Assembly (NCBI GenBank): GCA_017506865.1
Contig: JAFCMP010000379.1
Location: 310,001 to 374,000, forward strand
Direction: 5' to 3'
Length of the DNA stretch: 64,000 nucleotides
Source: Tribonema minus
Lineage: Eukaryota > Sar > Xanthophyceae > Tribonematales > Tribonemataceae
This document shows, one piece after another, positions 357-64,000 of this stretch (positions are counted from its first letter, which is position 1; each line of letters opens with the position of its first letter). Below the pieces are notes generated by a model. It was given only the letters and a program-made list of their open reading frames with translations. It ran no database searches and was not told the origin of the DNA. The position numbers and the translations under genes are program-made.

Positions 357-3300
357 GCCCACCACCCCCTCCTCGGGCTACAACATCCAGCTGGTCTTCA
401 GTGCTGCCACTACCCCTGACATTCAGGCAGCGTTCACGGCGGCTGCTGCGCGCTGGCAGACGGTCATCACGGGCGACCTGTGGGACGTACCCGCAATGAA
501 CATTGACTGGCTGTCCGGCGCCATCCCGGGTGTCTCGTACAAGGTGCGTCAACTTCAAGTGTTGAAGTAGACTTCAACTATTGAAGTAGACCCCCCCGCC
601 TCTCTTACCCTGAGCAGCAGCAGCAGCAGCCTGTCCACGTCAGCAGAAACCCGACGCGTGCCGTGTGCGCCTGGTAGCTGGGTGCTGTTTCAAACTGCAA
701 AGTTGAAGTTGCAACTCAGGGGGAGCGCGAGCAACATTGACTGGCTGTCCGGCGCCATCCCGGGCGTCTCGTACACGGTGCGTCGGCTTCAACTGTTAAT
801 TTAGTCTTCGACTATTGAAGTTGACTCTCCCGCCTCTCTCGACTGGCTCTCCGGCGCCATCCCGGGCGTCTCGTACACGGTGCGTCGGCTTTGACTGTTG
901 AAGTAGACCCCCCCGCCTCTCTCATGTCTCACCTGCTCATGCGGGCTTCCCGTCTTGATCGTCACGGGTCGCCCATTTCTGGTGGCGCCGTCGTGAGCCA
1001 CACGCTCTCTCCCACTCACCAGAAGGCGCCGGTAGCTCGTACGCGGTGAGTGGACGGCGGCGCTCATCCAGAGGGCGCCCGCCTGATGGCGCGCCGCCAC
1101 GCGCGCCTGAGCGGCATACGCTATGTCGCGACGACGCGCGCGCCGGCGCAGTTGAGCGCTGCTGCTGCATACTTGAGCGCCGTTACTGCTCCTGCGCGCT
1201 TGAGCGCTGCTGCTGCTGCTGCTGCTGCACAGTTGAGCGCTGCTGCTGTGCAGTTGAGCGTTGCTGCTGCGCAGTTGAGCGCTGCTGCTCTGCAGGAGCA
1301 GCGACGGCATGCGCGCTGCAGCGGCGCCGCCGCCCAGGGTCACAGTTGAAGATGCGGTCAGTGCGCCTGACGTCGCGTTCTCATTTCTGACCCAAACCTC
1401 AACCCTGAAGTTAACCCTGTGGGCTCTCTGGAGTCCCCTTCTTGAGCGCTAGGGTGAGCGTCAGGGTTGGGGTCAGGGTGAGGATTAGGGTGTGATTGTC
1501 AGACAGATCGTCATACTGCGTGCTGTTGCCGGCTCGCAATGCCCGCCATGCCTCCAGCCGGATGTATTAGGCAGTTTCAGCCCCCCGGAAGCGCCGAGTG
1601 ACCTCATCACACCCTACCTGCTGCACCTCCTGCGCTTGGACCACGAGCCAGGCCACTCCATACGGCTGACTCACATCTTGCGCTGGCGGTTGCTTGCTGT
1701 TGCGCAGGGCGCCGTTGATGACATCGTCATTGGAGTGGACGTCGTCCTGGACGGTGAGCGCTGCTGCAAACCCTAGTTGATGTTAGGGTAAGGGCTAGCG
1801 TTGGGTTGTTGGGTTTACAGATGGATCCTTGCCAACTCCATTTCTGAACTTCAAGTACCTGCCAGCCCTAACCCTAACCTTAGCCCGTGGCCCTGGACGG
1901 GAGCCAGTGCTGCAAAACCTTGTTGCTGTCGGGGTTAGGGCTAGTGTTAAAATTGTGGAGGAGTATCTGTGCCAACTCCACACCTGGACTTCAAGTACGT
2001 GCTAACCCTAAACCTAAGAAGCCAACCCTGCGCGCGAGTTAGCCGTACTCTACAAACAGGCATCCTCGGTTCTGCGCATCACAATTCACATGTTATGGTA
2101 GCTGTTCTTGCCTTACCTAGACCCTGCTAGCCCTACATCAGCGAGGACAGGGGTGACCCCCGCATGACACACGTCGCCATTGGCGGGCAAAATGCAGAAT
2201 TGATGCGTGACTTGGAGTGTAAACTAAGAATAAGTTGAGTGCGAGCATTGCAAAGCACCTCAAAGTATTGATACTTTGATTCAACCGTAACCGGAGTGTG
2301 AGACAGCCCAAAATGCGTTGGCGGGCAAGTGACGCAGAGCCCGTCTGTGGATCTCACTGGATCCGCCCGCATCATCACTTGGAGTGCCCCCCCCCCCGCC
2401 CCCTCTCCCTTGCTTGCTTGCTGCAGTTTTCATCTCAAGGTCATACATCCCTGCCCCATCGCTCCGCTCTGACGCTCGGTCCCCCCCTCTCACATCCCGC
2501 CAACAACCTTGCTAGCCCTCATAGGCATTGACAACACCCCCCCCCCCCCCCCGCCCCCCCCCGCTGGCTGCTCTGGAAAACCTAGCTACGCTAGCCCTCA
2601 CAGGCATTGACGACCCCCCCCCTGCCCCCCCCCCCCCCCCACACACGCTGATCGCTGCTGCAGACACGCTGACTTCCTCCCGCCCTATTTCCCCCCCCCC
2701 CGCCCCCCCCCCCTGCTGATCGCTGCTGCAGACACGCTGACTTCCTCCCGCCCTATTTCGGGCAGCGGCCAGATCCTGTGGATCCGCGGCGGCCCGTCCC
2801 TGCCTGTCTCGGCCGTCATGAAGTACAAGATACGACGCTCCAGCGCGGCGGCGCTGGTCGCCGACGGCGGCTACTTCCGCACCGTCGTGCTGCACACCAT
2901 GGGCCAAGTGCTGGGTGAGCGCTGCCACCGCTGGCTCGTTTGCTGTTTAGTCATCAAAATAAACTATCTGCTGTTCAGTTGTGAAAATGAATTCTTCGGC
3001 GGTTTTCGACCGCAGCCCTGGTGCGGCGCGGCGCGCCGACCCAACCTCAACTCCAACTTCAAAGTGCTCATGCGCGCAGCTCAGCTCATCTCGCCGACAG
3101 AGGCTTCTTCTGCTACGTCGTGATGCGAACTGTGGGCTGAGTGCCGCGTGCGCTGCCCCTTGGTCATGGTTAGGGTAGGGGGTAGACTAGGGTTAGGGTT
3201 ACGGGGGAAGGGGTATGTACGTTAGGTTGACGGCAGGTCCTTTCCCAACCTCAGCTGTGGCCATGTGCAGCATTCTGCTGCTGTAGCAATGCATGCCTCA

Positions 3301-3417
3301 GCATCTGCAAGTTTGCTGCTCGCATCTCAATTACCTACGTTCTTCAAGTGCGAGCGCCCCTGACCTTCAAACAACTTAAAGTGCGTGCTGACGCGCGCTG
3401 CGCACTTGCCGCCCACG

Positions 3418-3448
<31 letters not shown>

Positions 3449-6400
3449 CCCCCCTGCAGCTTGTCTGCATGTACAATTGCCCCGCGCCAGCCTCACTGAC
3501 CTCTAGTGCATCCCTATACCCCCCAAGTGTATGCTGAACCACCCCGCGCATGCCCCCCCCCCCCCCCCCCCCCTCCGCAGGCTATGGCTGGATGGCCTCC
3601 TCCTCTGCCACTTAGTCCGGTGCCGCGTGTAGCCTCTAATGCATCTCTATAGCCCTCAAGTGTATGCTGAGGTACGATGCACATGCCCCCTCCCCCCTCC
3701 CCCCCTCGCCCCCCCCCCCCGCAATGCTGAGGCACGATGCATGTGCCCCCTCCCCCCCCCCCCCCCTTCTCCCCCCCCGCAGGCTATGGTTGGATGGCCT
3801 CCTCCTCTGCCACCAAGTGCGGCGCCGCGTGCAGGAGCTCTGGCAACCCCCTGTACACCGCGGGCGCTGTCGCCACGTGCAACGCTCAGGTCAAGGCGAC
3901 GGAGCTCGGGCTCAGCGATCCCCTGGTGCTAGGTGAGTTGCTCTTCGTCCCTGACCCGAGCAATGCTGCAAGACGACTACCACTAGCTTGTTTGCTTGTT
4001 GCTCGCTGATGGCCGTGCTTCCGCAGCAGAATGAACCACCCGCTGCTTGCTCACCCCTTGGTTTGTGACAAAGTTTACTGAGCACTGCGGCTCAACACGC
4101 CCATGTCCCCAGGGGCTGTCAGGCGATGGTCAGCAAAAGTGGTAACATTGACGGGGGGCGGCAGCGCGCCGGTCGCATTCTGAGGGTTCAGAGGTGATCA
4201 TCAGTGCGCGCTGAGACACTTTCAAGGTGTTCACAATGCGCATGTAGAGTCTGATACAAGTAGCGAGCTGGACGTCTACCATCTGAGGGGTTTGGGGTGT
4301 GAGCCCAAGAGGGGGGGGGGCACGCTCTGGAGTGGGTTCAGGCTCAGGTGACTACCATCATTCCGAGGGACAAGCACAGTCGTAGTTCAGCGGTCTACCC
4401 CTACATCGCTCGTGAACGATGGTGCGAGTCCCGAAGCAAGAGAGAAGAGTCTTAATCTGCAGTCTTTTAGTCTGTGAACCGAACGTTAGTTGAAATGCTC
4501 AACTAAGCATGGATTATAGACCAGATGATTGAGGCTGAGACTTCGTCTTTCAGTAGCAGTGGCATCACTTTGATCGATCATGTCCCTTCACGAAAAAAGC
4601 TGAACATGCAGCGCGTGTCCCGTGTGTCCGGTTTTGCAGAAACTTCCGGAAGCTCAGCCTGCTACGCATGGAGTGAGGTAAGCTAGGGTTAGGCTTAGGT
4701 TTAGGGCTGCAGCGGGGCGGTGACGCTCCTCCCATCTCTGTTCAACTTCAAGTACGGCACACTGTATTTAGGCGCAGAAACGAAAGAGGAATATACCCAT
4801 GTGCACTCCCCACTACCCTACCCTGACCCACCACGTAACCCTACGGTGCACTGCTATCACATCTCTTCCAGATTAAGTCAGCGCTCGTCAGGCGGTGGCG
4901 GACACGCCGTTGCTTCCGCGCCAGATGCTGAGTACACCACAATGTTACTGCCTGCATGCACCCCGCATGGATGCACGCGCGCGTGCGGGCGCAGCAGCGG
5001 TTGGGCGCGTTTGTGTTTGAGGTCTGCACCTGGTATCGCGCTTTGCAGCAATTGCATTCTGCTGCGGCGGCCTGCGCTTAGGGTTGTAGGGTTAAAGTCA
5101 GGGTCAGGGTTAGGGTTAGGGTTAGGGTTAAGCTGAGCACCTTTATTCCCCTGTAGCAGCAACACTGAGCGTTAGGGTTGAAGTTGCTCCGGATCAGGGT
5201 TGAAGTTGCTGCGGCCCCAATGCGTCGCACGGACTTCAACTTCACGAGCACCTCGTACGCCTGGCTTACACCATAATGCGCGTTAGGGCCAGAGTCAGGG
5301 CGAGGGTCGTTGCCGGCTATGATATCATTATTCTGCTGCAGCGTGACGTAGTGTTAGGGTTAGGGTCAGGTCGGCGTGCCAGCCATCCTGTGCTACGACT
5401 TGCCCGGCTCGAAGCGGTTGTATGAGTGTACATACTTCTATCCTATACATACTCTACACAGTATGTGACCATCTAGTTGCACTCACTTCGATGTGAAGCG
5501 ACTTGTGGGCGCGGAACAGCTCAGCAGGAAAGTGGATTGAGATCTTGCCCGCTTGCTGAGTGAGCGCGGCTTCTTAGTGTCATCGCACAACGGACCAGAC
5601 TCAGCTAGTCAGATGCGGCATGTGCGCGACAGCTGGCACTTCGTATATACATGTGAATATCACTAGCCGCGATGGTCACTAGCCCGCAAGCTGCGGCGCG
5701 GTGCCCACGCCTTGTAATGAGACCTCCGGGGCACTCACATATACCTACCTACGCCTCCTCGCAGCGTTCGCGCACGTGCTTGCAGCTGTGCACCTAAGCT
5801 CATGACCAGCGCCCTGTCTGAGACTGGACTAGCTGTTTAAAGCCCCAGGGGGTAAGGTTCTTGGTGTCATCACATCCAATGGTCACTACCACGTCGGCCT
5901 GATGCTGCGGCGATGCGTACTTCTGCATTCACGTCACCGCCGCCAGGTACACTGGCCTGAGCGCTGCGATGCGCCATCAACACCTTGACGTGAACCGCTA
6001 ACATCCACTCATTCATTCATTCATTCATTCATGCACGTGTATTTATGTATGTGTGTACACCGCTCTGTCTTCGCGCCTGCAGACCCAGCTGTGCAACGAG
6101 CTCATGACCAGCGCCCTGTCCGGCACCGTCAACCCCCTCAGCGCCATCACCATGTAAGTTCAACACGCTGATGCCATGCATACCTACCTGGGGTGCTGTT
6201 GAAGTTGAAGTTGAGATCGAAGCATCATGTACTGTGCACAGCTGACTTGCAGCGACTGTGCTGCTGCGTGCCTGCCATCGCGGCATGATTGACAGCGCTG
6301 CAGCCACACCTGCAACTGCCAAGCGCTGATTTGTGCAATGTGCGCACGGCCGCTGCGGGATCCATCATTCCAATTTACGGTCATCTTGTGAGCTCCTCTC

Positions 6401-10879: not shown

Positions 10880-13800
10880 TCAGCACAGGTCCGCCGCGTC
10901 AGCGTCGAGCAGCTGCGGCGGCGGCGTGCGCCAGAAGTTGAGGTCCGAGTACGCGTCGCCAATGGGCGCAAGCGCTGCCGCCGCGCTGCTGCTGCTGGCG
11001 GCGGCAGCAGCGGACTGCGGCGGAAAGATCTCGCCGGACATTTTTGCCATTTCCGCCCAGGTCTGCAGCGCAGCGGGAGAAAGAGCATGAGTTGGTATGG
11101 TGAGACCATGCATGGCATGAAATGGCAGCGAAGAGGGGCCAATCGCGGCGGAAAGATGTAGCCGAGCATTTTTGCCATTTCCGCCCGCGTCCGCAGCGCG
11201 GCAAGAGAGAGGCGCGAGTTGGCGCGGTGAACGTGTGCGTCAAACGGCAGCGAAAAGCAGTAGAAAGATTTCGCCTAACACTTTCTTTGCCATTTTCGCC
11301 CAGGTCTACGCTGCGACAGGACGGAGGCGCGAGTTGTCGTCAGATGGCAGCAAAGAGTGGCAGATTGTGTGGTGGTAAGATATCCGGCCATTTTCGCCCA
11401 AGTCTGCTATGTGACAGGAGAGATGAGTGAGTTGGCATACGAGCGCGCGAGTGCATGTAGTCGGGTGGCAGCGAAAAGCGGCGCGCGCCGCGCGCAGCTG
11501 TGTGCCGATCGCACGTGCAGCGCGCACGTACGTGCTTTGATGACGCAATGGTCGTCTGAGTCAGCCAGACGGTGCGGCAGAGTACGCTACGCTGGCGCGT
11601 TTATTCCGTGGAAACAATGCTAATAGCATATTCACTCCCTTGCGTGCTGCTGACGGTTTGCGGTTGTGGCATGCTGCTCTCGTTCCGGCGCACGCAGAGC
11701 ACAAGACGGTGGGAACTTCAAGCATGCAACGCCGCGCCCTGTTGAACTTCAACTGGCTCGCACCGCGCCCTGCGGATCTTCAACTGGCTCACAAGTACAA
11801 AGCGCACATGCGCGCCTGCAAGCGCACCGCGCCCTGCTCAACTTCAATTGACTGCTGAACTTCAAGTGGATGCTCAACTTCAGCCGGCTCGCCAGCCTCA
11901 CCGCGCACACGGCGTGCTGCTCCGAACCCTTGCAACGCAATGGCCCGCCATCCCATGCCGCATGCCCGCAAACCCGCAGCAGCAGCAGCAGCAGCGCCCA
12001 TTACGTGATGCTCTGAGCCTTGCCAACACTTCAATGCCGTGCTTCATACCTTTCTGAAGGTCCGGTTGGCAGTCGTAACTGTGGAAGCACTGTCCACGCG
12101 AAATATGCGCCCCTCGGGAACCCCCACTTCTGCCAGAGTCGCCGCCTCGGCATGAGATGCGCAGAACCCTGTCGCGGCAGCGGGAGCGGGGGGTGGGTGC
12201 ACGGGGGGGGGGGGGGGGGGGGGGGGCGGCGCTTGAGAGGGGGGGGGGGCAGCACAAAGGATGTCCAGCGCACTGTGACCCTGGCCTGACTGGTTCAGCA
12301 TGTGGTGCCTTGGCTCCTACCCTCGAGCCCTCCTCTCATCTTACAGCCAAGGTTGGCGGGCTGAGAGCCCTTGTAAAATCAGGGACGCGGCCCAAGGTGG
12401 TTCAGCGCACTGTGGCCCTCTGACTGGCTTAATAGATGGTAGCCCTGGCCCTACTCGTTGCCCTAGTTTGAGCCTGGCTCTAACCCTACTTGATGCTGAC
12501 GCAAATACCTTGGCGCCCATCGTGCGAGCGGAATCGGCGAGTAGAACCGTCTGAAGCTCAAGTGTAAGTGATACGTGCCTTACCCATTCAGTCAACGCAC
12601 TGCGCACCCCGCGCAGATCAGCCACGCAATAAACATCGGCCTGGTGTGGAGCCTGTCTGCCATCGAGGTTCTTGTTCAGATATTGAGTACTGCTCACACC
12701 TACATGCGATCTGAGACATGCGATGTGAGACAGAAAGGCTATTTCGCGCTGCCAACCAACACACCAGCAAGTACTCACTTCTAAATGCACACGACTGGCG
12801 TCGGTCCCTGGTTGCTTTGGCCTGATCACACAACTGGCATCGGTCTTCGGTTGCTTTGATCACCTTTGTATCTACCTCTGAAGGTCAGGCTAGTGGGCAG
12901 TGACTCTCGGCGTTGTCTCCAGCACTAGCCACGCTACTGCCATTAGCTCCTGCACTTCGCTCTGAGCATGCCATACGCTGCTGACAATTGCGCGTGGCAC
13001 CTGCCATGTAAGCAACAACTTGAAGCACCGTGGCAACAGGCCCCGCAGAACGGCAAGCAACACACTTCAAAATTGAACTTCTTGACTTCAAATCTGCGCG
13101 CGCACCTGCGTGGAAGGGGTTGGAGCCCTGCGGGAACAGGCCCCTCAGACCGGCGAGAGCGGCTAGCGCAAACGCTGCCTGCGACTCCTCGCCAGAGTAG
13201 CCCTTGCCCTTGCCAGCCTGATCGGCGCCGAACAGTACCCTGAGAGGGGGGGGGGCGGTTTCACCCGTAACTGTCAGCGGTTTCACCCGTAACAGTCGGA
13301 TCAGTAGGCAGGTAGGCATGTGCAGGTACGCTCTTCTGAAAGTGCAAGGCTGATGTCATTTGTGTTCTTTGCAGTATCAACGCGCCCGCAGCGCGTGCAT
13401 ACCCCCATGTAGTTGAAGTTCAACTTTTATGTGAGAGCGGCAGATGTGCAACTTCAATCAGAACTTGCAGCTGGCGCCGTAGCCGGAACTCACCCCGGGG
13501 ACCTGAGAACGGGACTGTCGGCGGCAACAGCGGCATTCTGCGCCCCCCTCGCCCGCTTGCCCCCGCCGCCGCCGATGCGCACGACGTGATAGCCATGGCG
13601 CAGTAGGACAACGTACAGATCCGCAGCGGCCGCATTTGCCTGTGATGGGGGGGCGGCGCGGCGCATAGGAGGCCTCGGGATGAATTCTGTTGTGGCACAA
13701 GTGACGCTTCGCGATGAGGTTCTGTGATGAAATGATGCGCACTACGTGGTAGCCGTGGCGGAAGAGCACGCTGTACAGATCCGCCGCGGCCGCGTTTGCC

Positions 13801-19216: not shown

Positions 19217-19254
<38 letters not shown>

Positions 19255-35051: not shown

Positions 35052-36571
35052 AGGGGGGAGGCGCGGAGGCTGACCGGCGAGGAGGAGTGGCAGCGCGTGT
35101 CGGAATATGGACCTCGCTCATATTCTAGTGTCCGACTCAGAATCAGCGCTCATCAGTTGCATGTTGCGTGATGACATACTTGCGACCAGGTACCTGTTGA
35201 GAATGGCCGTCACATTACGCGCGTGCGTCGCGCTGCGCGCCGCCGCGGCCGCCCGCCGGGCAGGGGCCTTCTCGCTCGCGGCGACCTGACAGATGGCAGC
35301 TGCGCCAGCGATGACGGTTATGGGATGATGACGATGAATTTCTCTACGGTGACGGCTTTGACTTCTGCGACGTGCAGCGCGCGAGGCTCGCGAGTTGAGG
35401 CGGCGCCCCTCTCCAAGTGTGGCGTGCCTCGAGGAGGCCTTTTTGCCGAAAGTTTTCGGCGCCGCAATCACAAACGTGCTGCAAGCCTGGGTGGCGAGGC
35501 CCGCTCAAGCGGAGGATGCTCGGCAGCGTTGCCACTGCAGTCACGCTTGACCTGCCTCACCGCTCTGGTCTCCCCACGGCTGCTGAGGGTCTCCCATGAA
35601 TTGTTTCGCAGCTGCAAACACAAATGCCAAGATGTGTGCTTCAACCCCCTTCGCACTGTGCTTGGGTAATGCGGCGCCCTTGAGCACAACGGGGGGTACA
35701 CCATGCTGCAGCGAATTGCATCTCTCGCATGTCCAACCTGATGTATTTGCGTAGTGTGAAGTTTGACCGCGGAGCTTGGCAGCTGCCGTGTGTGCAAGTC
35801 GGCGTACACCAATGGCGCATGCTCTTGGAGGCATTGATGTTGGATGAAATTGAAGTTTTCTAATTTGACCAACCAGACAAGTGAGGCCGGTTTTCATGTG
35901 CTTGACTCACTTGACAAGTGACGTTTGCCGCTGCAATGCTGTCTGGCGCTGACATGTGTGTGTATTCGGCAGATGTGGTTGGACTGAACGGCAGTATGTA
36001 ATGATGGACGCAACTGTTTCTTTAAACCGTTGCTGCAGAGATGACGTCTTTGCTACGGCGTTGAACTGTTGCATGTTGCCTAACGTGATTGGCAGTCTGT
36101 GACCTCTGGCAGGCGGATGTCTGTGAATCAGCCAACGACAGCTCTGTTGGGTGTCCGTTCTGTTTTGTTCAAGTGCAAGACAATGACTCATCAGCCAATG
36201 ACAGCTCTACTTAGGCCACTGTTATCACAGTGTTGTTCTGTCAAGTACAAGACAATGGCTCGCGCGTACAGCTCACACTTGCGTGCTGCACATTTTGGCA
36301 CATGATCTGCGACGGTTCGCTGTGGCACATCATGCTCCTGCCAATTGGCACAGCCTAGACTATCGTATGCTCGCAAGAAAAGTCACTGCTATCATATGCA
36401 CATCAAAACAACCAGAAAAGAAAGGAACCAAGTGCTTGCAAGAACCAAGTCAATATACCACATCAAGCATGGGCACCACTGTGACCAGCCGCTCAATGCA
36501 TGTGCAAACAGCCAAGCACATCCCGTCAGCTCACACCGGGCCTTCACCAGCACACCATTATAGACAGCTAC

Positions 36572-51500: not shown

Positions 51501-54500
51501 AGGTATGATCCTTCAGGTACGTAGGTATTGTAGGTACTTGTATTACATACCCGTATCGGCCTCCATCTCCTGAGCATCACCAGCGGACGGCTGCCGCACA
51601 CGCCTTGAAGTATAGTGTGTATCAGTGATTCTGGCGAGTGCTATGCGCTCGTCAAGCAATGCGCGAATGCAGGTATGCTTCTTCAGGTAGGTAGGTATTC
51701 TAGGCATTACATACCTGTATCCGCCTCCATCTCCTGGGCATCACCAGCGGACGGCTGCCGCAAGCGGCCCGTCGCCGGCATGATGACTGCGCGCGGCGGC
51801 AGCGGCACGAGGCACACCGCCGGCCCCGCCTGCGCAGATGTAGAAAATGGAGGCACGACTCAGTGATTCGTTCGGTGCCACGCAGCATTGCAGTGCAACA
51901 AAAGCATCACAAAGAAGTGTTGCGTTGTGCAGAGTGCCGCGGTGATCACGCTGCGGCAGCAGCACGGCGCACGCCGCCGGTTCTGCCTAGACCCACTGCA
52001 CGGCAGGTACATCATGACTGCGCGCGGCAACAGGGGCACGAGGCACACCGTTGGCCCCGCCTGCACATAGGTGGCAAACGGAGGCGCAACTAAGTGATTC
52101 ATTGGGCAAACGACGGCGGTGATCGCGCAGCAGTGCAACAGTAGGGGCACAGAGTAGTGAATGAATTGGTCAGTGCACAGCGGCAATGACTGCGCGCGGC
52201 GGCAGGGGCGAGAGGCACACCGCCGGCCCTGCCTGCGTAGATGTAGCACACGAGGCAGAGCTCAGCGATTCGTTCGGCGCATGGCAGCGGTGATCGCGCG
52301 GTGGTGCTAGAGCAGGGGCACAAAGTAGTGACTCAATTGGTCTGCGATAGATTGCGTGCGGCAGCAGCGGCGCGAGGCGCACTGCTGATCCTTGGGTCTG
52401 CATGGGACCCTAACCCTGAACCTAGCGAGCCCGCTGCGATGCCGCTGGTTGCAGAACCTCTGCTGCGTGTTTGGGCCGTCTACTGGTCCCGTTCGGGGCG
52501 ATGAGACCTGGCCTTGTGCAGCACTGGGGTGATGAAGTACTGTCATTGAAGTTGCGGCTCGTACCTGCTGCAGCCGATGCACCAGCGCCTCTGTGCCGGA
52601 GCGTACGCCTGCTAGGCCGTAACAGCCCCTGTCGCACAAAGACACGCAATGCGGCAGTGTGGAGCAAGGGCAAGTCGGATTGCATCAGCTGTTTGCGCAT
52701 CAAAATGAAATGAGCGAGCTGCGGCGGCGCTGTGTCTAACCCTTGGTTTAGGGTTAGGGTTAGCGTTAGGATTAGCTGTGTATGCTTCGATACGCGTACG
52801 ACTAACGCAATCATGTCAACGAATGAGCACAAGATGGGGATCAACCAATCCATCGTTTGCACACAAACTCAGATACAAGTTCAAACATGCACACAAACTC
52901 AGAAACAAGTTCAAACATGCGACGCTCATGAGCTGGCAAAGTAGTTGGACCTGATGTTTCAGGGTTGAGGTGGGGTGAGAAGTATTTGCGCTGGCAGGTG
53001 CCACACCAAAGTAGTGTATGTGCGCTGCGGATAATGCGCATACCTCGAAATGGGAGTATCACCCTGGTGGTGATTCCATGCGCGACAGCGGCATATGAGG
53101 CGCCGAGGGCGCAACATGCCAAGCACCACTTGTTGAGATGCGCATGTAATCGCAGCTGACTGCGTATCTCGTACCTGACCTAAGCACCCACTTGACAGGA
53201 GGACCTTCAAAATACGCTCGTGGTAAGGTTGGCAATGCATGCCTCCCCGCCAATCTTACCATCCAAGAACAAGTAACGCGCTGGCTACTATGTTTCCACA
53301 CAAACCAAAAGGCTCACACCTGCTGCTGCGCAAGAGTACATCGAGAGTCCACTGTACCTGGCCTGTCCGCCGGTGGCCTCACACAGCTGACTGAGCGCCC
53401 TTCCCTGCAAAGCGCAGCAGCGCGCACAGACAAAGAGATTAAACCTATGACGCTGCAGCAGTGACGTCAAACAACCGACTCGAGAGGGGGCCCTGGGCAC
53501 AATTTCAAGTTATGGCACAACTTCAAGGTACGAAGCAGCACACACAAAGAGCAGCAGCGCACATAGACAGCAAGTGAGCAGTCGACGCGAACACGTATTT
53601 ACGTCTGTCTCCGTGGACATCACACTATGGGCAGCAGGAAAGTCGGTCGTCACACTTTCGCGCCGCCCCCTTTGCTCGTGCGAGAACACAAAGCTGGGTA
53701 CGGCAGCATGTGCCTTCAGTACCCACGCCACTATGCATATGGGCCCTGAAAGGCACAACGCATCACCGCCACTGACAACAATTACGCTCATGTGCCTACT
53801 CATGCGTGGCGAGTGGTGCCGCTCAGTCGCTGCCCCAGTGCTCAGCAGGCTGACCAGGGGGGCCCTCACAATGTATTTTGAAGCACTTCACAGAGTACAA
53901 CATATCGCATGTAAGCGTTGACGTGAGAGGCAGATCTAGACAGATGGCTGGGTGCGAACGGGGCGCCATACCCCTGACGCGCAACTAAAATGCGTTAGGA
54001 TCACCCCCCAACACCCTTGCACAGTTCGGATCTCCTCCTAACTCTAGAAGTGTGGCTGTTCCTAGCCTCCCGCAGCCCTAAAGGACTTGCCCTCGCAGTG
54101 ATTCCAAAGGACGCACTTGAGCGCTGACACAAGTGGCAATTTCTTGAACTGGCAACAGGGTGTGAATGGCGTGGTGTTGCCCCCTGGTGCGTGATCAGAA
54201 TGAACTACGGGCTGATTTCCGTTTTTACACCCTCACCCTGGAAGCGGGGGTGACCCTCGTCATAGCCCTACCTGGGCACTCACCCTAGAAGTGGATCCCA
54301 GCGACTCGTCTCCCGTGGGTTCCCCTGGCCCTAGCCCTACCAAGGTGCTTGCTTACTTTACTTACTTTCGTACTTACCCTAGCGGTGGGTCCAAGCGACT
54401 TCTCTCCCGTGAATTGCCCCTAGCCCTAGGCCTACTTATGTACTCATGTAGTTACTTACCCTACTTACTTGCGTACTTACCCTAGCGGTGGATCCCAGCG

Positions 54501-57500
54501 ACTCCTCTCCTGTCAGCACCAGGGCGTGCATGCGCTGCTCCCACCTGTATTAGGGTCAGTGTTAGGGTTACGGTTAGGGTTAGCCTAAGGGCGTGCATGC
54601 GCTGCTCCCCCCTGCCAACGCAGGGTCACCAGAGAGGCGAAACTGAAGTTCGTATAGAGTCGCACGCATGGGCCCTGCCGCTATAACCCCAAACCCTTAC
54701 CCTACTGGAGTACGTACGGCAGATAAACACACGGGCACAGGTCTGAAGTTCTGATCTAGGCCTAGACTCTGGTGGGCCAAAGCACTTTCCTGCCTGTCAA
54801 CACAGGATCACTGTAGGGACAAGAGTGAAATGAAGTCCCAGTGCCGCGAAAGAGTGGGGGACATGCCGCTCATTACTGCAGCGATCTAGACACGACCAGG
54901 TCAGAGCTTGGCAGGTGGAAACGTGGTTGCAGGTTGAACATTCTAATGTCGGCCAAAACTCTGGGCCTTTGCGCTAGCCCGGCAGCAAGTGATACCCTGC
55001 TGCAGCCGCGTGGCTAGTCTGGCCAATCTGGTGTCGGAGCGTCGTCGCGCTGGGAGCGCGTGGCGCTCCGAGCACATGCATCAGCGGCTCAACAGCAGCG
55101 GCTGCTGCGCTGCGAAGCGATGCGCACGCATATCGACAGCGGCAATGCACGGACAGTGACGCTGAAAGGCGACCTCCATGCGTACGCCCCAGTCTACAGT
55201 GATTGAACTTCAACTTGCACAACCAGCGCCAGCGTGCAAAGCCTCTGTGGCTTTAATCGCCGAGCCTCAGTGGCACGTGCCTTGGTGTGACCATGCGTAA
55301 TTCGCCACGATAGTGTGCAAAGCTTGCTGTTTGGCTCACAAGATGCTGCGCACTTCGCGGCTGCCCCCCTGCGCTCGCAGTTGCAACTTCAACTAGCACC
55401 ACCCAGCGCAGCGCTTGAACCGACGACATGCCTCACCCACTACAAGCACCGCAACGACTGCAGCGCACAGAACAAGGGTTGAGAAGTGCTTGCTTGCCTG
55501 TAAGGGGTCACGCTGAGGTCTTCACCGGGCATGAAGGCGACCGACAGTGGCGGGGCCCCTGGCACCCGGTCGGCGCTGTCTCTGAACAGCTTCTCGTTCC
55601 TCAGTTCGGCGGGGACTTCGGGGGGGGCGCCCTCCTGCAGCGGCGGCGCAGGAATAGGACAACGACATCAATGGATGCGCCCTGAAGCAAGTATATGTGC
55701 CTGTCGGCAGCGAGAAACCTCATACTCTTAAACTGTAACCAGGTACCGACAGCAGTATATCAAGCGATGATGACAACAGCTAGGAGGAGTGCGTTCAGGT
55801 ACGGTGCCTTGAGGCATGTTGTAGTGCGCTCACTGCTCAGCAGGGGAGACAGCGTCGTGCACATCTGCACTAGTGATGACGAGCCAAGCGCTTGGGGTTA
55901 AGGTTAGGGTTAGGTTAACCCTACGTCTATGCAAGGGTCGGCATTGTGCCCCCCTTCCCCTCGTCTCCCTTTTGAGTTGGAGACGCAGAGCGAAACGGTC
56001 GAGAATTCAGCAATTGCGGTGCGACATATTGCTCAGCGGGCGACACTGCGCCATGCGCATTCACGCGATCGTGATGACAACAGCTGGGCGCTGCCACCTG
56101 CAATGCTGACACTGGACAAAGGTCGTGGGGACAGGTAGAGCAGGTGCTCATGATGTGCGCACTTCAACTGTAGAACTCGAAACCTCAAGCGCGATGCACC
56201 TTCAGCGCGGCGGGCGTGTTGTGGGTGATGAGTCATATAAGGGTGCCGACGTCCACCTGCATCAGACATGACTGAACTTCCAACATGAACTAGTAACTCA
56301 TGGGTGACGCACCTTCAGCACGGCGGGCGTGTTATGCGGGATGAGTCATATGAGGGCACACTGACTGCATCAAATCGGAACTTCAAATGTGAACTCAAGA
56401 CATCAAGTGTGACGCACCTGTAGCGCGGCGGGCGTGTTGTGTGTGATGAGTATGAGGGCCCCCACGTCCACCTGCCACGGCAGCCGGCCGCGGCCCCAGT
56501 TGTCTACGCCGGAGAGCATCCTGCAGGAATGACGCGACGCAGAATGCACTTTTGTAAGTGTCGGGTAATTGTCGCGCACAGCGGGTGCAGATGTGATGCT
56601 GCATGGTCTCGTAGCGGAAATTGCTGAAGGCACGGCACGCTCCATGAGACGCATGTGCACACAGCGTGGCATCGTCGCTGTAACTGTCGGGTAACTGACG
56701 CCAGCTGAGCGTGCCGGTCTCATGTGATGCTTCACAGTATCGCGCCGGAGACCACTGTAGGCAGCGCACGGCACTGTCGGAGCGCTGACATCTACGCAGC
56801 CTATATGCCTCAAGTGCACAAACGCCGTTGTGGCGTCGTCATGTGACTGCAACAGTCCGTGCACGTATGGGCTGTCAGGCGATTACCGCGCAGAGGGTGC
56901 CGATGTGGTGCTATACGGTATCGCACCGGAGACTTGGCGGTGCGCCAACGGTGCGCTGGCCCGTGCGCGACCGCTGACTCACCGGTGCCTGTTCATGAGG
57001 TAGAAGCCGGAGCGCAGGGCGGGACCGAGTTGAGCGCTGCTGCCACCGCTGCCCTGAGCGCTGCCATCTTCAACTTCATCCTGCGGCGAGAGCAGCGGCA
57101 GCGGCAGCGCAGGCGGTTGAACACGTTGAGCTGGTGCTGCTGTCACGTGAAGAAGCTGCTGCGCACCGGGCCTGAGCCGAGCATGGCCGCGCTTGAGCGC
57201 TGCTGCTGCGCAGCGCTGGCAGAAATAGACGTAGTTGAAAGGTAGTGCTGAGCTTGCGTTCGACCACGAGATTGACGCTCGAAGCACGAGCAGAGCTTGA
57301 GCGCTGCTGCTGCTGCTGTTGTGAGCATTGCTGCTCCTGCAGCAGAATACATTACCAGACTTCATGGCTGCTGTTCTGTGCGCAAACAGCCTGCGTGACA
57401 GTTGGGCTGCTGTGCTGAGCACAGGTGCCGCACGCATCGAGCGACGAGCGCTGCTGCCCCTACACCGCGGCAGCAGTGCTCAGGCGACGAGCCCCTCCAA

Positions 57501-59989
57501 TTGAGCGCACGGCACTCCTGAACTCTATATATGGATACTTCAGAGATGCAGTTGAAGTTGATAACCCGCACGGCGCTGCTCAACCTGGGCGACCACGCAG
57601 GCCTGACCTTGGGCATTGGCAGATGTCTAACGTCAGAGGTGCAGTTGAAGTTGATGCATCTGTTGAAGTTGATACATCTCACATGATCTCGCGCTGCCCC
57701 TACATCGTAAACGCACTGAGCAATGTGGGCTGTGGAGTATGGTAGTTGCCCTCATGCGCACCATTCCCCTACGACATCGGTAGTGACTGGATTTGTATGC
57801 GACACAGCGTGCTCAGTGCTCAGGCTCAGTGCTCAGGCTTGACCCTACTGTGCCCCAACCTGACCAATCAATCGCCTCAGGGGCATCCGACCTGCGGGTG
57901 AAACACGACTGACTGACTGACTGAGATCTGGGCCTGCAATGGCACGTCACCTCCTGTTCCTACAGCCCCGGATTGACCACTTGATTAGCCTTTGACATCC
58001 GCAGCGCATTGAGCTAGACATTAATCCACACTTCAAGGCATGCTACTGAATGCGCCCTAAACTCCCAATCCAATCGCCTGCGGCATCCTATGCAACCAGA
58101 CAAAGAGCATTCCGAGCCTGACCCTGGGGGCGGTTCGTACACTTTAACCCCTTCCCGTAGCAGATCGGGCGTTTGTTCACCTTTGGCATGCGCAGCAATT
58201 TGAGCTGCGCCTCAACGTGCACTTCAAGGCATGAGCCTCACCACCCCCTTCACTTCTTCACTTACTAGTTTGAGAGCGCTCAAGTGTTCACTTTCTTGCT
58301 GACCTTTGGCATGCACAGCGATTTGCCTCATAGCGCACTTCAAGGATGAGCCTCACCACGCCCATCACCCCTTCACTACAAGCTTAATACCAGCTTGAAA
58401 GCATGATTGCTGACCTTAAGCAGCGCAGCATATCTCCCTTGTCTAGCTTGAGTTCACCTTTGGCATGCGCAGCATGCACTTCACCCCTTCAGTGACGTAC
58501 TGGGTTGGGAGCCTTGTGTTCACCTTTGGCATGCGCAGCAATTTGAGCTGCACCTCAAAGTGCACTTCACCCTTGCAGTGACTTACTGCTCAAGAGCACT
58601 TTCCCGCTGACCTTAGGCATGCGCAGCGATTTGAGCCTTATGTATTAAATTGAGAGCACGTTATTGCTGACCTGTGGCATGCACAGCGATTTGACTGAAT
58701 TTACTAGCTTGATAGTACTTTTACTTAATTGCTGACCTTTGGCATGCGCAGCGATTTGAGCTGCGCCTCAAAGTGCGCGGGGCCATCCCCCCAGCGGCAC
58801 AGCACCGCCTCCGGCCCCCCCGCCGTGGTCATCAGCAGGAACTGGTCGCCCTTGTTCCACCTGCAGCCCTGCGGGATGATACCATTACAGCGTTCACAGA
58901 TGTTGTCGTCAGCCTGTTGCAGTGATACGTTTTGGACTGACAGCTAACCCTGACCCTAACCCTAACCCTAACCCTAACCCTAAAATAGCGCCACCACCGT
59001 ACCAGAGGCGGACAACCAAGCACCCAAGCAGACACAACTCACGAGAGCATGTGTTGCCAGCAGAATAAGTGAATTTGGAGCACGGTGAGAACCCTGTCTA
59101 AGGTTGCACGTCAGTGCTCACCAAGGACCCAACCTCAGCATGTGCTGAGCTCTGCTCTGTCACATACGCTGCATCGCACAGCGTAGTCAGCCTGTCGCAG
59201 TGCTCAACAGGAGTCAGCCCGGTCTCGCGATTGGAGCTGCAAGAGAAAGCACGTTCCACTTGGCCGCACCATTACGACGCTTCAATGATGTTGATAGTCC
59301 TCGTGTGCCACGACATTTCAGAGCAGCATTGTGCCCTTTGGGAGGCTTGTGTTGTCGAACTCCATGTGCGTACAATGCGTTGCTGCGCTGACATATGAGC
59401 TACCGGGATGCTATCGCCTTGCATGACGCCGCTGACAGCAGAGCGCTGGTGTTTGGTAGGAAGAACTGTCTCATGAGACCATCAAATGGTGCAGACGATA
59501 TGCACCATGTGCAACATGAACATTTTGGTACCAACTTCAATCAGCAAACAAATGAAAGCCCTGGCAGGACTACTGCCTTGTCAATGCACATCACACGCTG
59601 TTTGCCGCCTTGTTGTGAGCTGCAACCAAATTCTTCAGCGTATCAAGCTCGGATCAAAGTCAGCACTTAACATGTGCCGAACATAATATATTCCCCTCGC
59701 ACTGCTGCGCCTGCATTCGTACGACACGGCACAGCGGCCACCAACACCGCCCCTGCCACATGCCACGCTCCTGGCAGCTACATCAGTAGCCAATGCTGTC
59801 TTATATTGACGATGATACACTCACCTTGGCAAGCGAGTCCACAGCTATCTTCGCCAGGTCCAACAAGCAGAAGTCCGGTGGCTTCTCGTTCTTCCTTTTC
59901 TCACTGTTGTGAGACAGGTGCTGGGGTTTGGCCAGCGGCGCCGCTGCCGCCATGGGCGGGCTGACATCTATCAGGAACAGCAGCATCAT
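36572..59989 (-). CDS. INTS6: Integrator complex subunit 6 (INTS6) with C-terminal WW domain
   Basis: INTS6 is part of the nuclear Integrator, which cleaves nascent RNA and bridges to PP2A at RNA polymerase II. Exons, 5' to 3': 59989-59825, 58868-58737, 57080-56983, 56520-56418, 55634-55526, about 55104-55050, 53404-53358, 52628-52565, 51829-51715, 50352-50285, 49335-49189, 47897-47744, 45926-45754, 45093-44985, 44037-43960, 41161-41048, 40332-40050, 37974-36572; about 1,120 residues. Most junctions are in phase. VWA domain: MMLLFLIDVSPPM, KGDQFLLMTTAGG, LGPALRSGFYLMNRHRMLSGVDNWGRG, ALILITHNTP. Then LCEATGG, EALVHRLQQ, SWPLPEAG, MDEYEVE, LPYNFPWLVHLL, TPEWRNDFKTYL, PPGQLLEHFERMRRGLF, MSNYIALLLSREPLRD and VAVDFGNPF, all in INTS6 order. 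The last exon starts with ADMALDEAADE, is Ala/Pro/Gln-rich and ends in a WW domain (GWTVQR, YFFNSTTGKSLW). Gaps remain at 44.0-45.0, 41.2-43.9 and 38-40 kb, where phases do not join. Confidence 0.9.
38025..38165 (-). repeat. Tandem intron repeat before the last INTS6 exon
   Basis: Two units of about 70 bp, each with CACTCTCTTTCC-like, CTTCATC and CACGGTAC segments, lie just upstream of the acceptor at 37975. Confidence 0.75.
39240..39953 (-). repeat. Donor echo array of INTS6 exon 40332-40050 (five copies)
   Basis: The exon end coding EVMQRKVAVDFGNPF plus its GTGCGT donor recurs downstream at about 39867-39953, 39710-39785, 39563-39625, 39411-39475 and 39240-39310. Spacing is 150-170 bp and similarity to the source falls with distance. 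The nearest copy is identical over most of the FGNPF-coding part. Confidence 0.93.
42130..42420 (-). repeat. Threefold repeat of a putative INTS6 exon start
   Basis: A block with the reverse complement of TTTTGCAGAGCGGAGCT recurs at about 42136, 42241 and 42384. The lowest copy is followed (minus strand) by an open stretch to a GTGAGC donor at about 42056, so it may be a true exon of INTS6 with two upstream acceptor echoes. The encoded residues are not recognisable. Confidence 0.5.
42470..42800 (-). repeat. Degenerate tandem repeat, about 80 bp units
   Basis: Four to five units share GCGAGAGCTCAAAGTGC, CTTGCTTCCAAAAC, GGTACCTGACAGC and GGCTATTAGGGTGC. The array lies in an INTS6 intron. The source junction was not identified. 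Confidence 0.8.
43450..43760 (-). repeat. Tandem repeat, about 70-74 bp units
   Basis: Four and a half units, each with an ATGCGACTGGCTCGCC-like and CGTTGCGCTGCC-like core, within the INTS6 gene. It may be another echo array; the source exon is unknown. Confidence 0.8.
43840..44245 (-). repeat. Threefold copy of the INTS6 WRND exon
   Basis: Copies at 43845-43920, 43960-44040 and 44165-44240 read WRNDLKTYLTAVPLYYHATF, WRNDFKTYLTAVPLYYHAAL and a shorter WRNDFNTYL. Only the middle one has both a CCAG acceptor and a GTGAAG donor, so it is taken as the real exon; the others could be alternative exons. Confidence 0.85.
45139..45355. repeat. Minisatellite, about 15-16 bp unit
   Basis: About thirteen units of the type GCGGCTCAGTTGTGTCA in the INTS6 intron upstream of exon 45093-44985. 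Confidence 0.95.
46017..46110 (-). repeat. Acceptor echo of INTS6 exon 45926-45754
   Basis: The exon start coding PARMPKDAKWPLFARAVPSP and its acceptor have an upstream copy about 175 bp away, more than 90 percent identical by eye and open in frame. Long C homopolymers on the sense strand precede both copies (45947-45966 and 46161-46200 in plus coordinates). Confidence 0.9.
47009..47662 (-). repeat. Donor echo array of INTS6 exon 47897-47744 (four copies)
   Basis: The exon end coding YEVEWCAGNAPSAATAFYSSR and its GTAATG donor recur downstream at about 47592-47662, 47437-47510, 47108-47178 and, shortened, 47009-47045. Three copies remain open over the whole coding part. Confidence 0.94.
47286..47337. 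repeat. Interstitial TTAGGG array between echoes
   Basis: About eight TTAGGG-type units, two variant, between the third and second donor echo of exon 47897-47744. Confidence 0.92.
48036..48402 (-). repeat. Acceptor echo array of INTS6 exon 47897-47744 (three copies)
   Basis: The exon start coding VFYKVPADAS recurs upstream at about 48040-48075, 48135-48178 and 48362-48402. Next to each copy lies a GGGTTAGGG-type stretch at the position where the exon itself has GGTAGGGTCC; a pure array of TTAGGG fills 48178-48205. Confidence 0.88.
48551..49060 (-). repeat. Donor echo array of INTS6 exon 49335-49189 (three copies)
   Basis: The exon end coding RARDDLPPLRTGQPE and its donor recur at about 48966-49060, 48757-48813 and 48551-48611, spaced 205-230 bp. 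Each unit also carries an AT-rich segment with TACATATCAAGCGCTCTTA. Copies become shorter with distance. Confidence 0.94.
49445..49598 (-). repeat. Acceptor echoes of INTS6 exon 49335-49189 (two copies)
   Basis: The exon start coding DESGKPVRGILT recurs upstream at about 49445-49495 (DETGKPGRGILT) and 49552-49598 (NESGKLVRGILT). Confidence 0.9.
51550..51600 (-). repeat. Donor-side echo of INTS6 exon 51829-51715
   Basis: The 3' part of the exon (GRLRQPSAGDAQEMEADT) recurs about 155 bp downstream with few changes. Confidence 0.8.
52013..52395 (-). repeat. Acceptor echo array of INTS6 exon 51829-51715 (three copies)
   Basis: The exon start coding AGPAVCLVPLPPRAVI with its acceptor recurs upstream at about 52013-52090, 52184-52275 and 52345-52395, each followed upstream by the same intron segment (GATTCGTTCGG-like). 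The nearest two copies are open in frame. Confidence 0.93.
56205..56365 (-). repeat. Donor echoes of INTS6 exon 56520-56418
   Basis: The exon end coding ITHNTPAAL and its GTGCGT donor recur at about 56310-56360 and 56205-56270, spaced about 105 bp; the farther copy has a stop in frame. Confidence 0.88.
57988..58695 (-). repeat. Donor echo array of INTS6 exon 58868-58737 (seven copies)
   Basis: The exon end coding EAQLKSLRMPK and its GTCAGC donor recur near 58672, 58606, 58518, 58452, 58303, 58180 and 57988. Recognisable parts are GGCATGCGCAGCGATTTGAG and AAGTGCACTTCA, with unit lengths 60-190 bp. This is the longest echo array in the window. Confidence 0.9.
58944..58984. repeat. Interstitial CCCTAA array
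   Basis: Six to seven CCCTAA units in INTS6 intron 1. Confidence 0.95.
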
Positions 59990-63100: not shown

Positions 63101-63154
63101 GTGCAGTATGCGGTGGCGCGGCAGGTGGGGCGCGACACTGCGCCGGAGATACTG
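60101..63154 (+). CDS. Unrecognised, probably nuclear, low-complexity protein (3' partial)
   Basis: Three exons chain in phase: 60101-60803, 61714-61772, 62849-63154; the last ends in a GTGAGT donor and the gene continues towards or past the right edge. About 356 residues are visible. The start MGEKGSSYDLFGVPHQDS is the first ATG in frame; an in-frame TTG lies upstream at 60044. There is a poly-Ala stretch near residue 100, a basic segment KKKARLRPNARAKLKRAKQ (about 130-150) likely to be a nuclear localisation signal, an acidic EDDDGEEEES stretch, a second basic KRRKKQK, another poly-Ala run, then RERRRIAEAAAAAKAL and an acidic Gly/Glu-rich tail ending VARQVGRDTAPEIL. I do not recognise the family. 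Divergent from INTS6, so a shared promoter is possible. Confidence 0.65.
61480..61585 (+). repeat. Acceptor echo of exon 61714-61772
   Basis: Segments resembling the acceptor region and exon start (GTCGCCGCAGTGGTAGCG and ATCGTTTCCATCTGC) occur about 150-230 bp upstream of the true acceptor. Confidence 0.55.
62440..62760 (+). repeat. Acceptor echo array of exon 62849-63154 (three copies)
   Basis: C homopolymer, CAACAGCAG acceptor and the RERRR-coding start recur near 62450, 62528 and 62638. The nearest copy is open for about 120 bp, reading RERRRAEAAAAAKARAASDNGGGG, and could act as an alternative exon. Confidence 0.9.
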
Positions 63155-64000
63155 GTGAGTGAGCCAGCGGCGCTCAGCACTGGTTCAACTTTAACTTCAA
63201 TGTGAAAGTGTCAGAAACGAGAACTAGCGATGTTGGTGGGGGAGCACCAGCCCCCGGCGTTGATATGTTGCGCAGTGATGAGTGTAGAGGGAAGGGGCAG
63301 GTATACTGATGATGAGTGAGCAGCAGCGCTCAGCACTGGTTGTTCAACTTCAACGTGAAAATGTGCGTCAGAAGCGAGAGTCAGAGATGTTGGTGAGGGA
63401 GCACCAGCGCCCGGCATTGATATGTTGTGCAATGAGGGGGAAGGGTCTGGGATACCGTGAGTGAGCAGCTGCGCTCAGCATTGGTTGGCAGTGGTGTGGT
63501 CACGGAATGTGTGCGAGAGGAGGGTGTGGGTTGAAGGGTAGGGTTTAGGGGCGGGGAGCGAGGGGCGATGCTCAGCAACTGATTGGACAGGAATCAGCGG
63601 GGGGGCTTCGAAATATGCTGTGGTCAGCAGACACGGCGGCGGAGACATTAGTACCTAGAGTATATGTAGGGGCGCAGGCAACAGCAGCGGCAGCGCTGCG
63701 TCAAGGAGTCGGGTGGGGTGGGGGAGGGGCGGTCTGGGCTGGTGCAGTATCTAGGGTAAGGGTTTAGAGTTAGGGGCAGAATTAGTTTAGTGAGGAGCGG
63801 CAGCGCTGTCTGAAGCGGTCGGGGCGGGTGCTGGGGGGTGCGGTATCGCAGTTTTGTGATGAGTCAGGCGCGGCGCTGCCCGGATGCAATGTGTGAGTGA
63901 GCAACGCTCAGAAAGGGCAGAGCAGGGACCGGCGTTTCTGTGTTTGTGCGGTATTGCGATTTGTGGCCAGCAAGTCGCCAGCCTCCGTGTGCAGCTGCGG
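63155..64000 (+). other. Intron with donor echoes, right edge
   Basis: The bases around the donor at 63154 (GATACTGGTGAGTGAGCCAG) recur near 63300 and 63450 in units of about 150 bp with shared GATGTTGGTGGGGGAGCACC-like and CCGGCGTTGATATGTTG-like parts. Beyond 63650 several CGGCAGCGCTG segments recur, possibly acceptor echoes of an exon outside the window. No exon was identified. Confidence 0.7.

What the first reader, a model, noticed from the sequence alone, without database searches (positions are those of the whole stretch)
357..63500. Splice-junction 'echoes': introns filled with tandem copies of their own exon boundaries
In all five genes, on both strands, the bases spanning a splice junction are copied one to seven times in the adjoining intron. 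More than twenty junctions show it. The direction follows a strict rule: exon 3' end plus donor is copied downstream, acceptor plus exon 5' end is copied upstream, so copies always fall inside the intron. Copies range from almost identical to nearly erased, usually decaying with distance. Established models of intron gain by tandem duplication produce one copy; a repeated, junction-centred process that keeps lengthening existing introns has not, to my knowledge, been described. Function (decoy splice sites, recursive splicing, alternative exons) is open.
Basis: partly seen in the sequence, partly recalled or inferred. Interest (0 to 1): 0.95.

Follow-up and report, generated by a model that had tools for sequence, protein, structure and literature searches.

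The report
Intron growth by splice-junction duplication
In this algal genome, short stretches straddling the edge of an exon are duplicated again and again into the neighbouring intron, which makes introns longer and leaves decaying, apparently unused copies of exon ends inside them.

Summary
In 43 curated introns of five window genes, 15 of 43 donor and 13 of 43 acceptor junctions have copies in their own intron; inverted copies 0 of 86, exon centres 0 of 20. It recurs elsewhere: 24 of 70 junctions in four more genes on the contig, 3 of 88 in light-harvesting genes on other contigs, and 4 of 4 AAA exons examined on further contigs.

The copies look like short local duplications, 29 of 57 nearest ones head-to-tail. 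Duplications wholly inside introns occur at 0.17-0.20 per kb in every gene set; junction-spanning ones exceed uniform placement many-fold, except in light-harvesting genes. Junction arrays span 22,977 of 74,120 intron bases and match the length difference between introns with and without them.

Copies show almost no coding constraint, and transcript-derived proteins of two genes omit them at eight array-bearing junctions. So: recurrent, near-neutral duplication whose intronic product escapes selection, not an evident splicing device. The one-way rule follows largely from selection and definition. What causes the junction excess is unknown. The organism is probably a Tribonema-like yellow-green alga (inferred).

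The parts
499..922 (+). Gene A: donor array of exon 357-543, two copies
1740..2017 (+). Gene A: donor array of exon 1708-1753, one copy
2511..2759 (+). Gene A: acceptor array of exon 2732-2914, one copy
2858..3157 (+). Gene A: donor array of exon 2732-2914, one copy
3500..3834 (+). Gene A: acceptor array of exon 3783-3932
5783..6120 (+). Gene A: acceptor-side copy of exon 6083-6153 (the copy starts just inside the exon)
11007..11434 (-). Gene B (lipin): array next to a predicted late exon (11062-10880); not among the 43 introns and not counted
   Evidence: reading by eye
13574..13853 (-). Gene B: acceptor array of exon 13639-13494, one copy
14256..15120 (-). Gene B: donor array of exon 15267-15018, five copies
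19573..19797 (-). Gene B: donor array of exon 20068-19768, one copy
24180..31354 (-). Gene C: phosphate transporter, 14 exons placed with transcript-derived protein P0001
25092..25291 (-). Gene C: donor copy of exon 25381-25240; omitted in P0001
27148..27446 (-). Gene C: acceptor copy of exon 27198-26969, 147-bp unit, 98% identical (recent); omitted in P0001
27546..27719 (-). Gene C: 94-bp duplication wholly inside an intron (background type), 97.5% identical
39414..40126 (-). Gene D (Integrator-6-like): donor array of exon 40332-40050, four or five copies
42125..42308 (-). Gene D: acceptor array of exon 42154-42060
42436..42788 (-). Gene D: donor array of exon 42867-42775
43794..44394 (-). 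Gene D: arrays on both sides of exon 44062-43960
45841..46112 (-). Gene D: acceptor copy of exon 45926-45754, 93.5% identical
47039..47810 (-). Gene D: donor array of exon 47897-47744, three copies
47851..48429 (-). Gene D: acceptor array of exon 47897-47744, three copies
48514..49284 (-). Gene D: donor array of exon 49335-49189, three copies
49296..49611 (-). Gene D: acceptor array of exon 49335-49189, two copies
51442..51762 (-). Gene D: donor array of exon 51829-51715
51776..52385 (-). Gene D: acceptor array of exon 51829-51715
54269..54513 (-). Gene D: donor array of exon 54545-54481, two copies
54521..54614 (-). Gene D: acceptor-side copy of exon 54545-54481
56161..56475 (-). Gene D: donor array of exon 56520-56418, two copies
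58173..58776 (-). Gene D: donor array of exon 58868-58737, five copies at the stricter and eight at the looser score
62368..62947 (+). Gene E: acceptor array of exon 62846-63154, two copies
63153..63487 (+). Gene E: repeat beginning at the donor of exon 62846-63154, almost wholly intronic; not counted as a junction array

Best explanation
Short local duplications recur at exon-intron boundaries. One breakpoint lies 14-102 nt inside the exon, the other in the intron; the first copy sits 53-326 nt from its junction (median 149). If the duplicate falls in the intron and the exon-adjacent splice site keeps its signals, splicing is unchanged and the duplication survives; if not, the mRNA gains sequence and the allele tends to be lost. 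Each new copy pushes older ones away from the exon, so arrays build up and the intron grows by about one unit per event, while old copies decay as ordinary intron DNA. Shown here: the anatomy, recurrence on several contigs, excess over uniform placement, link to intron length, near-absence of coding constraint, omission of the copies in transcript-derived proteins of two genes. Inferred: the repair step (fill-in and joining after offset nicks, which in rice gives tandem, partly tandem and nearby non-tandem copies), the role of purifying selection in the one-way rule, the outward push of older copies, and an exon-edge hot spot.
For: Junction arrays 26 against 8 free in the window and 24 against 6 in four further genes, where uniform placement predicts shares of 0.19 and 0.18 (P 7.6e-13, 3.5e-13; with a doubled visible lifetime 1.4e-7, 4.1e-8). 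In simulation the two kinds are almost equally detectable up to 0.15 divergence per branch and differ 0.36 to 0.16 at 0.20 (45 trials each). Array pairs of at least 90% identity: 12 junction, 2 free, 1 whole-exon. Flank homology fills the gap between junction and copy, as in head-to-tail duplication, in 29 of 57 nearest copies. Intron length; paralogous introns of 660 and 966 bp, the longer with two acceptor copies. Exon-specific changes 4, 5, 23 at codon positions 1-3, copy-specific ones 7.7, 5.5, 9.8%. Donor and acceptor sides equally affected, 30 and 27. Flank identity falls with order. Transcript-derived proteins. Rice precedent: passage of PMC7407515.
Against: In 28 of 57 nearest copies the head-to-tail signature is incomplete (12) or absent (16), so some copies may be non-tandem. 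Exonic parts of copies resemble each other more than intronic flanks (83 against 59%, 67 of 68 pairs), more than a neutral simulation gives (77 against 65%). Adjacent copies are not more alike than distant ones, and exonic identity hardly falls with order. Light-harvesting genes show no junction excess. Copy-specific changes have a mild third-position excess (odds 1.54, p=0.0008). The exon-edge hot spot has no identified cause, and most gene models outside genes C and GNL3 lack transcripts.
Confidence: 0.62

Rival explanations
1. No hot spot: short tandem duplications hit all DNA equally; those at junctions are merely noticed more and stay visible longer because the exon copy is conserved.
For: Duplications wholly inside introns exist at a steady 0.17-0.20 per kb; in light-harvesting genes the mix fits uniform placement (P=0.19); a junction share of 0.18-0.36 is expected anyway.
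Against: Excess with P below 1e-6 in two gene sets even with a doubled lifetime, also among pairs of at least 90% identity; simulated detectability nearly equal.
Confidence: 0.15
2. The copies have a function in splicing (decoy sites, splicing enhancers, regulated or recursive splicing) and are kept by selection.
For: Donor GT kept in 32 of 34 and acceptor AG in 15 of 18 copies; exonic parts more conserved than flanks; strong difference between gene classes.
Against: Copy-specific changes nearly even over codon positions; GT and AG retention is close to what the measured divergence predicts; spacing ignores frame; two transcript-derived proteins omit the copies, one isoform each. Non-coding function is not excluded.
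Confidence: 0.08
3. Arrays are ordinary old duplications whose exonic parts are refreshed by gene conversion from the exon, so junction arrays persist while others fade.
For: Exonic parts 83%, flanks 59% identical between copies, and exonic and flank identity do not correlate (rho 0.08, p=0.46).
Against: At some sites the exon has changed while the copies agree with each other: 32 of 1357 sites with two or more copies, 23 of them third positions, so those copies have not been refreshed since. Two duplicated genes with 18.7% third-position mismatch have a mean flank identity of 0.59, so fast flank change alone may suffice.
Confidence: 0.1
4. Assembly artefact.
For: Draft assembly of 554 contigs; no reads were available.
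Against: Most copies are diverged and differently spaced; they recur on many contigs; exon structures agree with independent transcript-derived proteins. Two contigs with the same locus agree at 99.93% over 5.9 kb, which speaks to general base accuracy only, since no array was compared there.
Confidence: 0.03

Closest known systems
Short tandem and near-tandem duplications ascribed to patch-mediated double-strand-break repair in rice (Vaughn and Bennetzen 2014, known to me here only through a passage and reference in PMC7407515)
   Same: Insertions in the 10-1000 bp range that are tandem, partly tandem, or copied from within about 200 bp
   Different: Here the duplications concentrate on exon-intron boundaries, recur at the same junction and make up much of the intron; breakpoints were not resolved well enough to prove the repair route
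Intron gain by internal gene duplication (titles by Gao and Lynch 2009, and Lehmann 2010 on intron sliding or tandem duplication, seen in the reference list of PMC3488318; model details recalled)
   Same: Duplication of a segment with splice-site sequence
   Different: Here existing introns grow; copies carry the exon end with the existing splice site and intron start, and many junctions fire repeatedly
Exon duplication giving alternative or mutually exclusive exons (recalled)
   Same: Exon sequence duplicated into the neighbouring intron
   Different: Here one end of the exon is copied as a rule (one whole-exon array of 50 junction-type arrays plus one), frame is ignored and copies decay
Introner and proliferating stwintron elements (stwintrons: abstract passage of PMC8469720; introners recalled)
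   Same: Change intron content on a large scale
   Different: Those spread one sequence among many genes; here each copy matches its own gene, not introns of other genes

Membership tests
Short tandem duplication (patch or end-joining type) | Unit of roughly 10-1000 bp copied in direct orientation close by | tested here: met
   First-copy spacing 53-326 nt; reverse complement 0 of 86
Short tandem duplication (patch or end-joining type) | Head-to-tail adjacency | tested here: inconclusive
   Full signature in 29 of 57 nearest copies, partial in 12, absent in 16
Short tandem duplication (patch or end-joining type) | Breakpoint signature (little microhomology) | tested here: inconclusive
   Too few exact young cases to judge
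Intron gain by tandem duplication | A new intron at a position that had none | not tested
   No intron-free relative could be compared
Intron gain by tandem duplication | Copy of the exon end abuts the opposite splice site of the new intron (recalled) | tested here: not met
   First copies lie 53-326 nt from their own junction in introns averaging 919-988 bp in the window and contig sample
Duplicated alternative exons | Whole exon with both splice sites copied | tested here: not met
   Exonic part 14-103 nt and never the whole exon in the window; one whole 42-nt exon in the sample
Duplicated alternative exons | Copies keep an open frame under coding selection | tested here: not met
   Copy-specific changes 7.7, 5.5 and 9.8% at codon positions 1-3
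Introner-like elements | Same sequence shared by introns of unrelated genes | tested here: not met
   Junction queries against introns of other genes: 99th percentile score 29, maximum 46 of 688, own-intron hits up to 126
Functional decoy splice sites | Copies recognised by the spliceosome | not testable with these tools
   No RNA reads held; two transcript-derived proteins omit copies at eight array-bearing junctions

The most novel reading that the evidence does not exclude
Exon-intron boundaries in this lineage are a mutational hot spot for short duplications, linked to splicing, transcription or exon chromatin, and act as a continuing conveyor, so that intron length is set largely by how often each junction has fired.
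Probability: 0.4. Interest if true: 0.86.

Novelty: new variant of a known kind. Interest (0 to 1): 0.72.

Why it matters
How introns grow is usually put down to mobile elements and random indels. Here about three tenths of the sampled intron bases outside light-harvesting genes lie in arrays of copied exon edges. That makes intron lengthening traceable event by event, gives a natural test of how many extra splice sites a spliceosome tolerates, and leaves near-neutral fossils of earlier exon sequence beside living genes. It also warns gene finders: my own predictor read several copies as exons.

Tried and rejected
Haematococcus was my first guess for the source, from GC and telomere-like repeats; dropped after the protein searches. 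An aphelid source, suggested by the EukProt label 'Partr' (read from memory as Paraphelidium), was dropped because the genome has 92 chlorophyll-binding matches and the named proteins nearest to GNL3 are from brown algae and their kin. A Tribonema-like host alga is inferred.

The idea that copies end sharply at the splice consensus came from nine hand-picked alignments. In 88 copies it does not hold in general: of 27 young copies 22 align 30 nt or more into the intron, but 11 of the 27 have low flank scores (16 or less), and 16 of 57 nearest copies have no clear flank homology, so it may hold for a minority. Nucleosome-sized units (147 bp) were considered; spacing is broad (53-326), so dropped. 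Gene conversion is left as a rival.

Rows left out: the low-complexity exon repeat 36800-37486, the gene B late-exon array (11007-11434) and the gene E donor repeat (63153-63487) are not in the junction counts. Micro-exon 6958-6972 of gene A was removed before the counts. In the sample, predicted exons that were copies or very short were dropped by hand. Gene M_28 was added because copies had been seen there and is left out of the counts I rely on. The light-harvesting group holds every light-harvesting model I made, but not every such gene in the fetched loci; two of its five junction arrays lie at the outer edge of a partial model, so the inner figure is 3 of 88. The Integrator search gave no own transcript. 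Ten paper searches listed no paper that I recognised as describing recurrent junction duplication; I saw titles, abstract starts and passages of five papers, no whole paper, and subscription journals are mostly not held.
Full report
WHAT WAS CHECKED. The window is bases 310001-374000 of contig C379 in a 158.18 Mb eukaryotic assembly of 554 contigs. A transcript-derived protein (P0001, 99% identical over 98% of the query) fixes all 13 introns of gene C, a phosphate transporter. Gene B is a lipin (Lipin_N above Pfam's cut-off, LNS2 below it). Gene D resembles Integrator subunit 6 (two homologues, both with PF25462). Genes A and E have no Pfam match at E 0.1 and rest on open frames and splice sites.

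THE ECHOES ARE REAL. In 43 introns (39,525 bp), 15 of 43 donor and 13 of 43 acceptor junctions match their own intron; reverse complement 0 of 86, intron on the other side of the exon 5 of 76, exon centres 0 of 20, intergenic 72-mers 3 of 57. Intron-interior 72-mers score 32 of 96, as often as junctions, but windows inside echo arrays were not excluded, so this control is not clean; the array counts below replace it. Direct local repeat pairs number 92; the 6 inverted rows are four self-palindromes and two in low-complexity exon.

THEY ARE NOT A LOCAL ODDITY. 210 kb more of the genome was fetched. Four further genes on the same contig (a zinc-knuckle/RRM protein, an HSP90, GNL3 and an M12B-type protease) have arrays at 24 of 70 junctions. 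Light-harvesting gene models on other contigs have them at 3 of 88 inner junctions, plus two at outer edges of partial models. A family search listed 19 AAA-domain exons. Row 1 and rows 6-19 were not examined, and these exon edges have no transcript support. A second transporter gene on C346 shows three copies of the region that is duplicated in gene C and further local repeats.

MORE THAN UNIFORM DUPLICATION. Arrays wholly inside introns occur at 0.20, 0.17 and 0.19 per kb in the window, the contig sample and the light-harvesting set. Junction arrays number 26 against 8 free, 24 against 6, and 5 against 4 (3 against 4 without the two outer-edge arrays). Uniform placement predicts junction shares of 0.191, 0.183 and 0.361; P = 7.6e-13, 3.5e-13 and 0.19; allowing junction arrays twice the visible lifetime, 1.4e-7, 4.1e-8 and 0.58. 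In simulation both kinds are almost equally detectable up to 0.11 divergence per branch, 0.89 against 0.73 at 0.15 and 0.36 against 0.16 at 0.20 (45 trials each). Arrays whose best pair is at least 90% identical in the window and contig sample: 12 junction, 2 free, 1 whole-exon. So the excess is strong in most genes and not seen in light-harvesting genes. Whether highly expressed genes purge junction copies or are not hit is unknown.

INTRONS GROW WITH IT. In 78 introns of the window and contig sample, 37 without junction arrays average 651 bp, 29 with one 1190 and 12 with two 1292 (p=7.5e-8 for with against without); after removing the array span the groups do not differ (p=0.90). Junction arrays span 22,977 of 74,120 intron bases and free arrays 4,144; the span includes the original unit, so the inserted share is somewhat smaller. 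Two light-harvesting genes sharing a 430-bp match at 90% identity show it directly: the intron before that exon is 660 bp in one and 966 bp in the other, which carries two acceptor copies.

ANATOMY. The first copy lies 53-326 nt from its junction, median 149 (n=57). Its exonic part is 14-102 nt, in the window never the whole exon. It is usually less than half of the spacing: median 0.32, 95th percentile 0.48, maximum 0.64. The intronic part is at least 42 nt at acceptors and 30 nt at donors, as expected if the exon-adjacent site must keep its signals. In 29 of 57 nearest copies, flank homology fills the whole gap, as in head-to-tail duplication; in 12 it is shorter and in 16 not clear. Spacing modulo three is 18, 22 and 17 for 0, 1 and 2. 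Donor and acceptor sides are about equally affected (30 and 27 junctions of 222), which speaks for a DNA-level process rather than one tied to a single splicing step.

COPIES EVOLVE NEARLY FREELY. Exon against copy in the window, mismatches are 7.9, 7.0 and 17.0% at codon positions 1, 2 and 3. With two or more copies to polarise (47 arrays with a known frame), exon-specific changes are 4, 5 and 23 of about 450 sites each; copy-specific ones 7.7, 5.5 and 9.8% per site. The exon is constrained, the copies nearly not. The mild third-position excess in copies (odds 1.54, p=0.0008) may be old synonymous states kept by older copies, or weak constraint. Donor GT survives in 32 of 34 and acceptor AG in 15 of 18 copies, close to the neutral expectation. 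P0001 lacks the copies at both array-bearing junctions of gene C. P0123, a 655-residue transcript-derived protein that matches the GNL3 gene at 627 residues, uses the exon-adjacent site at all six array-bearing junctions. Only one isoform of each was seen, and no RNA reads.

ORDER OF EVENTS. Identity of the intronic flank to the source falls from 0.676 in the first to 0.603 in the last copy (p=0.010, n=25), as if new copies form next to the exon. Exonic identity falls only slightly (p=0.11, n=30). Adjacent copies are hardly more alike than distant ones (0.856 against 0.850), consistent with copies made from the exon edge rather than from each other.

WHAT DOES NOT FIT YET. Between copies, the exonic part is 83% and the intronic flank 59% identical, exonic higher in 67 of 68 pairs; exonic and flank identity do not correlate (rho 0.08). 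A neutral simulation of the conveyor gave 77 and 65%, exonic higher in 155 of 184 pairs, or 72 and 59% with more indels. Two duplicated light-harvesting genes with 18.7% third-position mismatch have a mean flank identity of 0.59, so fast change of intron flanks may be enough, but refreshing of copies from the exon, weak constraint on copies, or non-tandem copying is not excluded.

COMPARISON WITH WHAT IS KNOWN. The elementary step looks like the short duplications described for rice, tandem, partly tandem or copied from within 200 bp, and ascribed to offset nicks and end joining (passage in PMC7407515). Models of intron gain by duplication concern new introns (titles in the reference list of PMC3488318; details recalled). 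I recognised no paper on repeated junction-centred duplication in ten searches of an open-access library. I therefore call it a new variant of a known kind: known step, new target, frequency and consequence.

ORGANISM. 92 chlorophyll-binding matches and GNL3 neighbours named Ectocarpus, Pylaiella, Scytosiphon, Chrysoparadoxa and Phaeothamnion suggest a photosynthetic stramenopile. The near-identical P0001 in a EukProt set labelled Partr suggests the host alga of that culture, a Tribonema; this last step rests on recall.

Noticed in passing
31245-31597 and 34702-35054: A 353-bp stretch covering the first coding exon of gene C is repeated 3.46 kb upstream at 99.4% identity, a recent non-tandem duplication.
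   Followed up: no
5087-5130, 20358-20403, 47283-47338, 48178-48205, 58944-58983: Telomere-like TTAGGG/CCCTAA runs lie inside genes, several within introns and beside arrays.
   Followed up: no
9412-9550 and 22738-22880: Two similar stretches of about 140 bp in non-coding DNA, perhaps a dispersed repeat; seen by eye only.
   Followed up: no
2732-2914: Gene A reads LHTMGQVLG where a zinc metalloprotease would have HExxH (motif recalled), perhaps a lost protease site; no Pfam match.
   Followed up: no
P0001 (EukProt Partr_v1_DN41087): A protein filed under a set labelled Partr is 99% identical to a gene of this chlorophyll-protein-bearing genome; if the label means the aphelid Paraphelidium (recalled), it is probably host carry-over.
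   Followed up: partly
C70:82001-88000 and C489:3001-9000 (L038, L039): Two contigs carry the same 5.9 kb at 99.93%, so the assembly keeps some duplicate or allelic contigs.
   Followed up: partly
L026 and L027: Paralogous light-harvesting genes: one has copies on both sides of an exon, the other none.
   Followed up: yes
C346:489732-490145 (L041): A second phosphate-transporter-like gene shows three copies of the stretch that is duplicated in gene C.
   Followed up: partly
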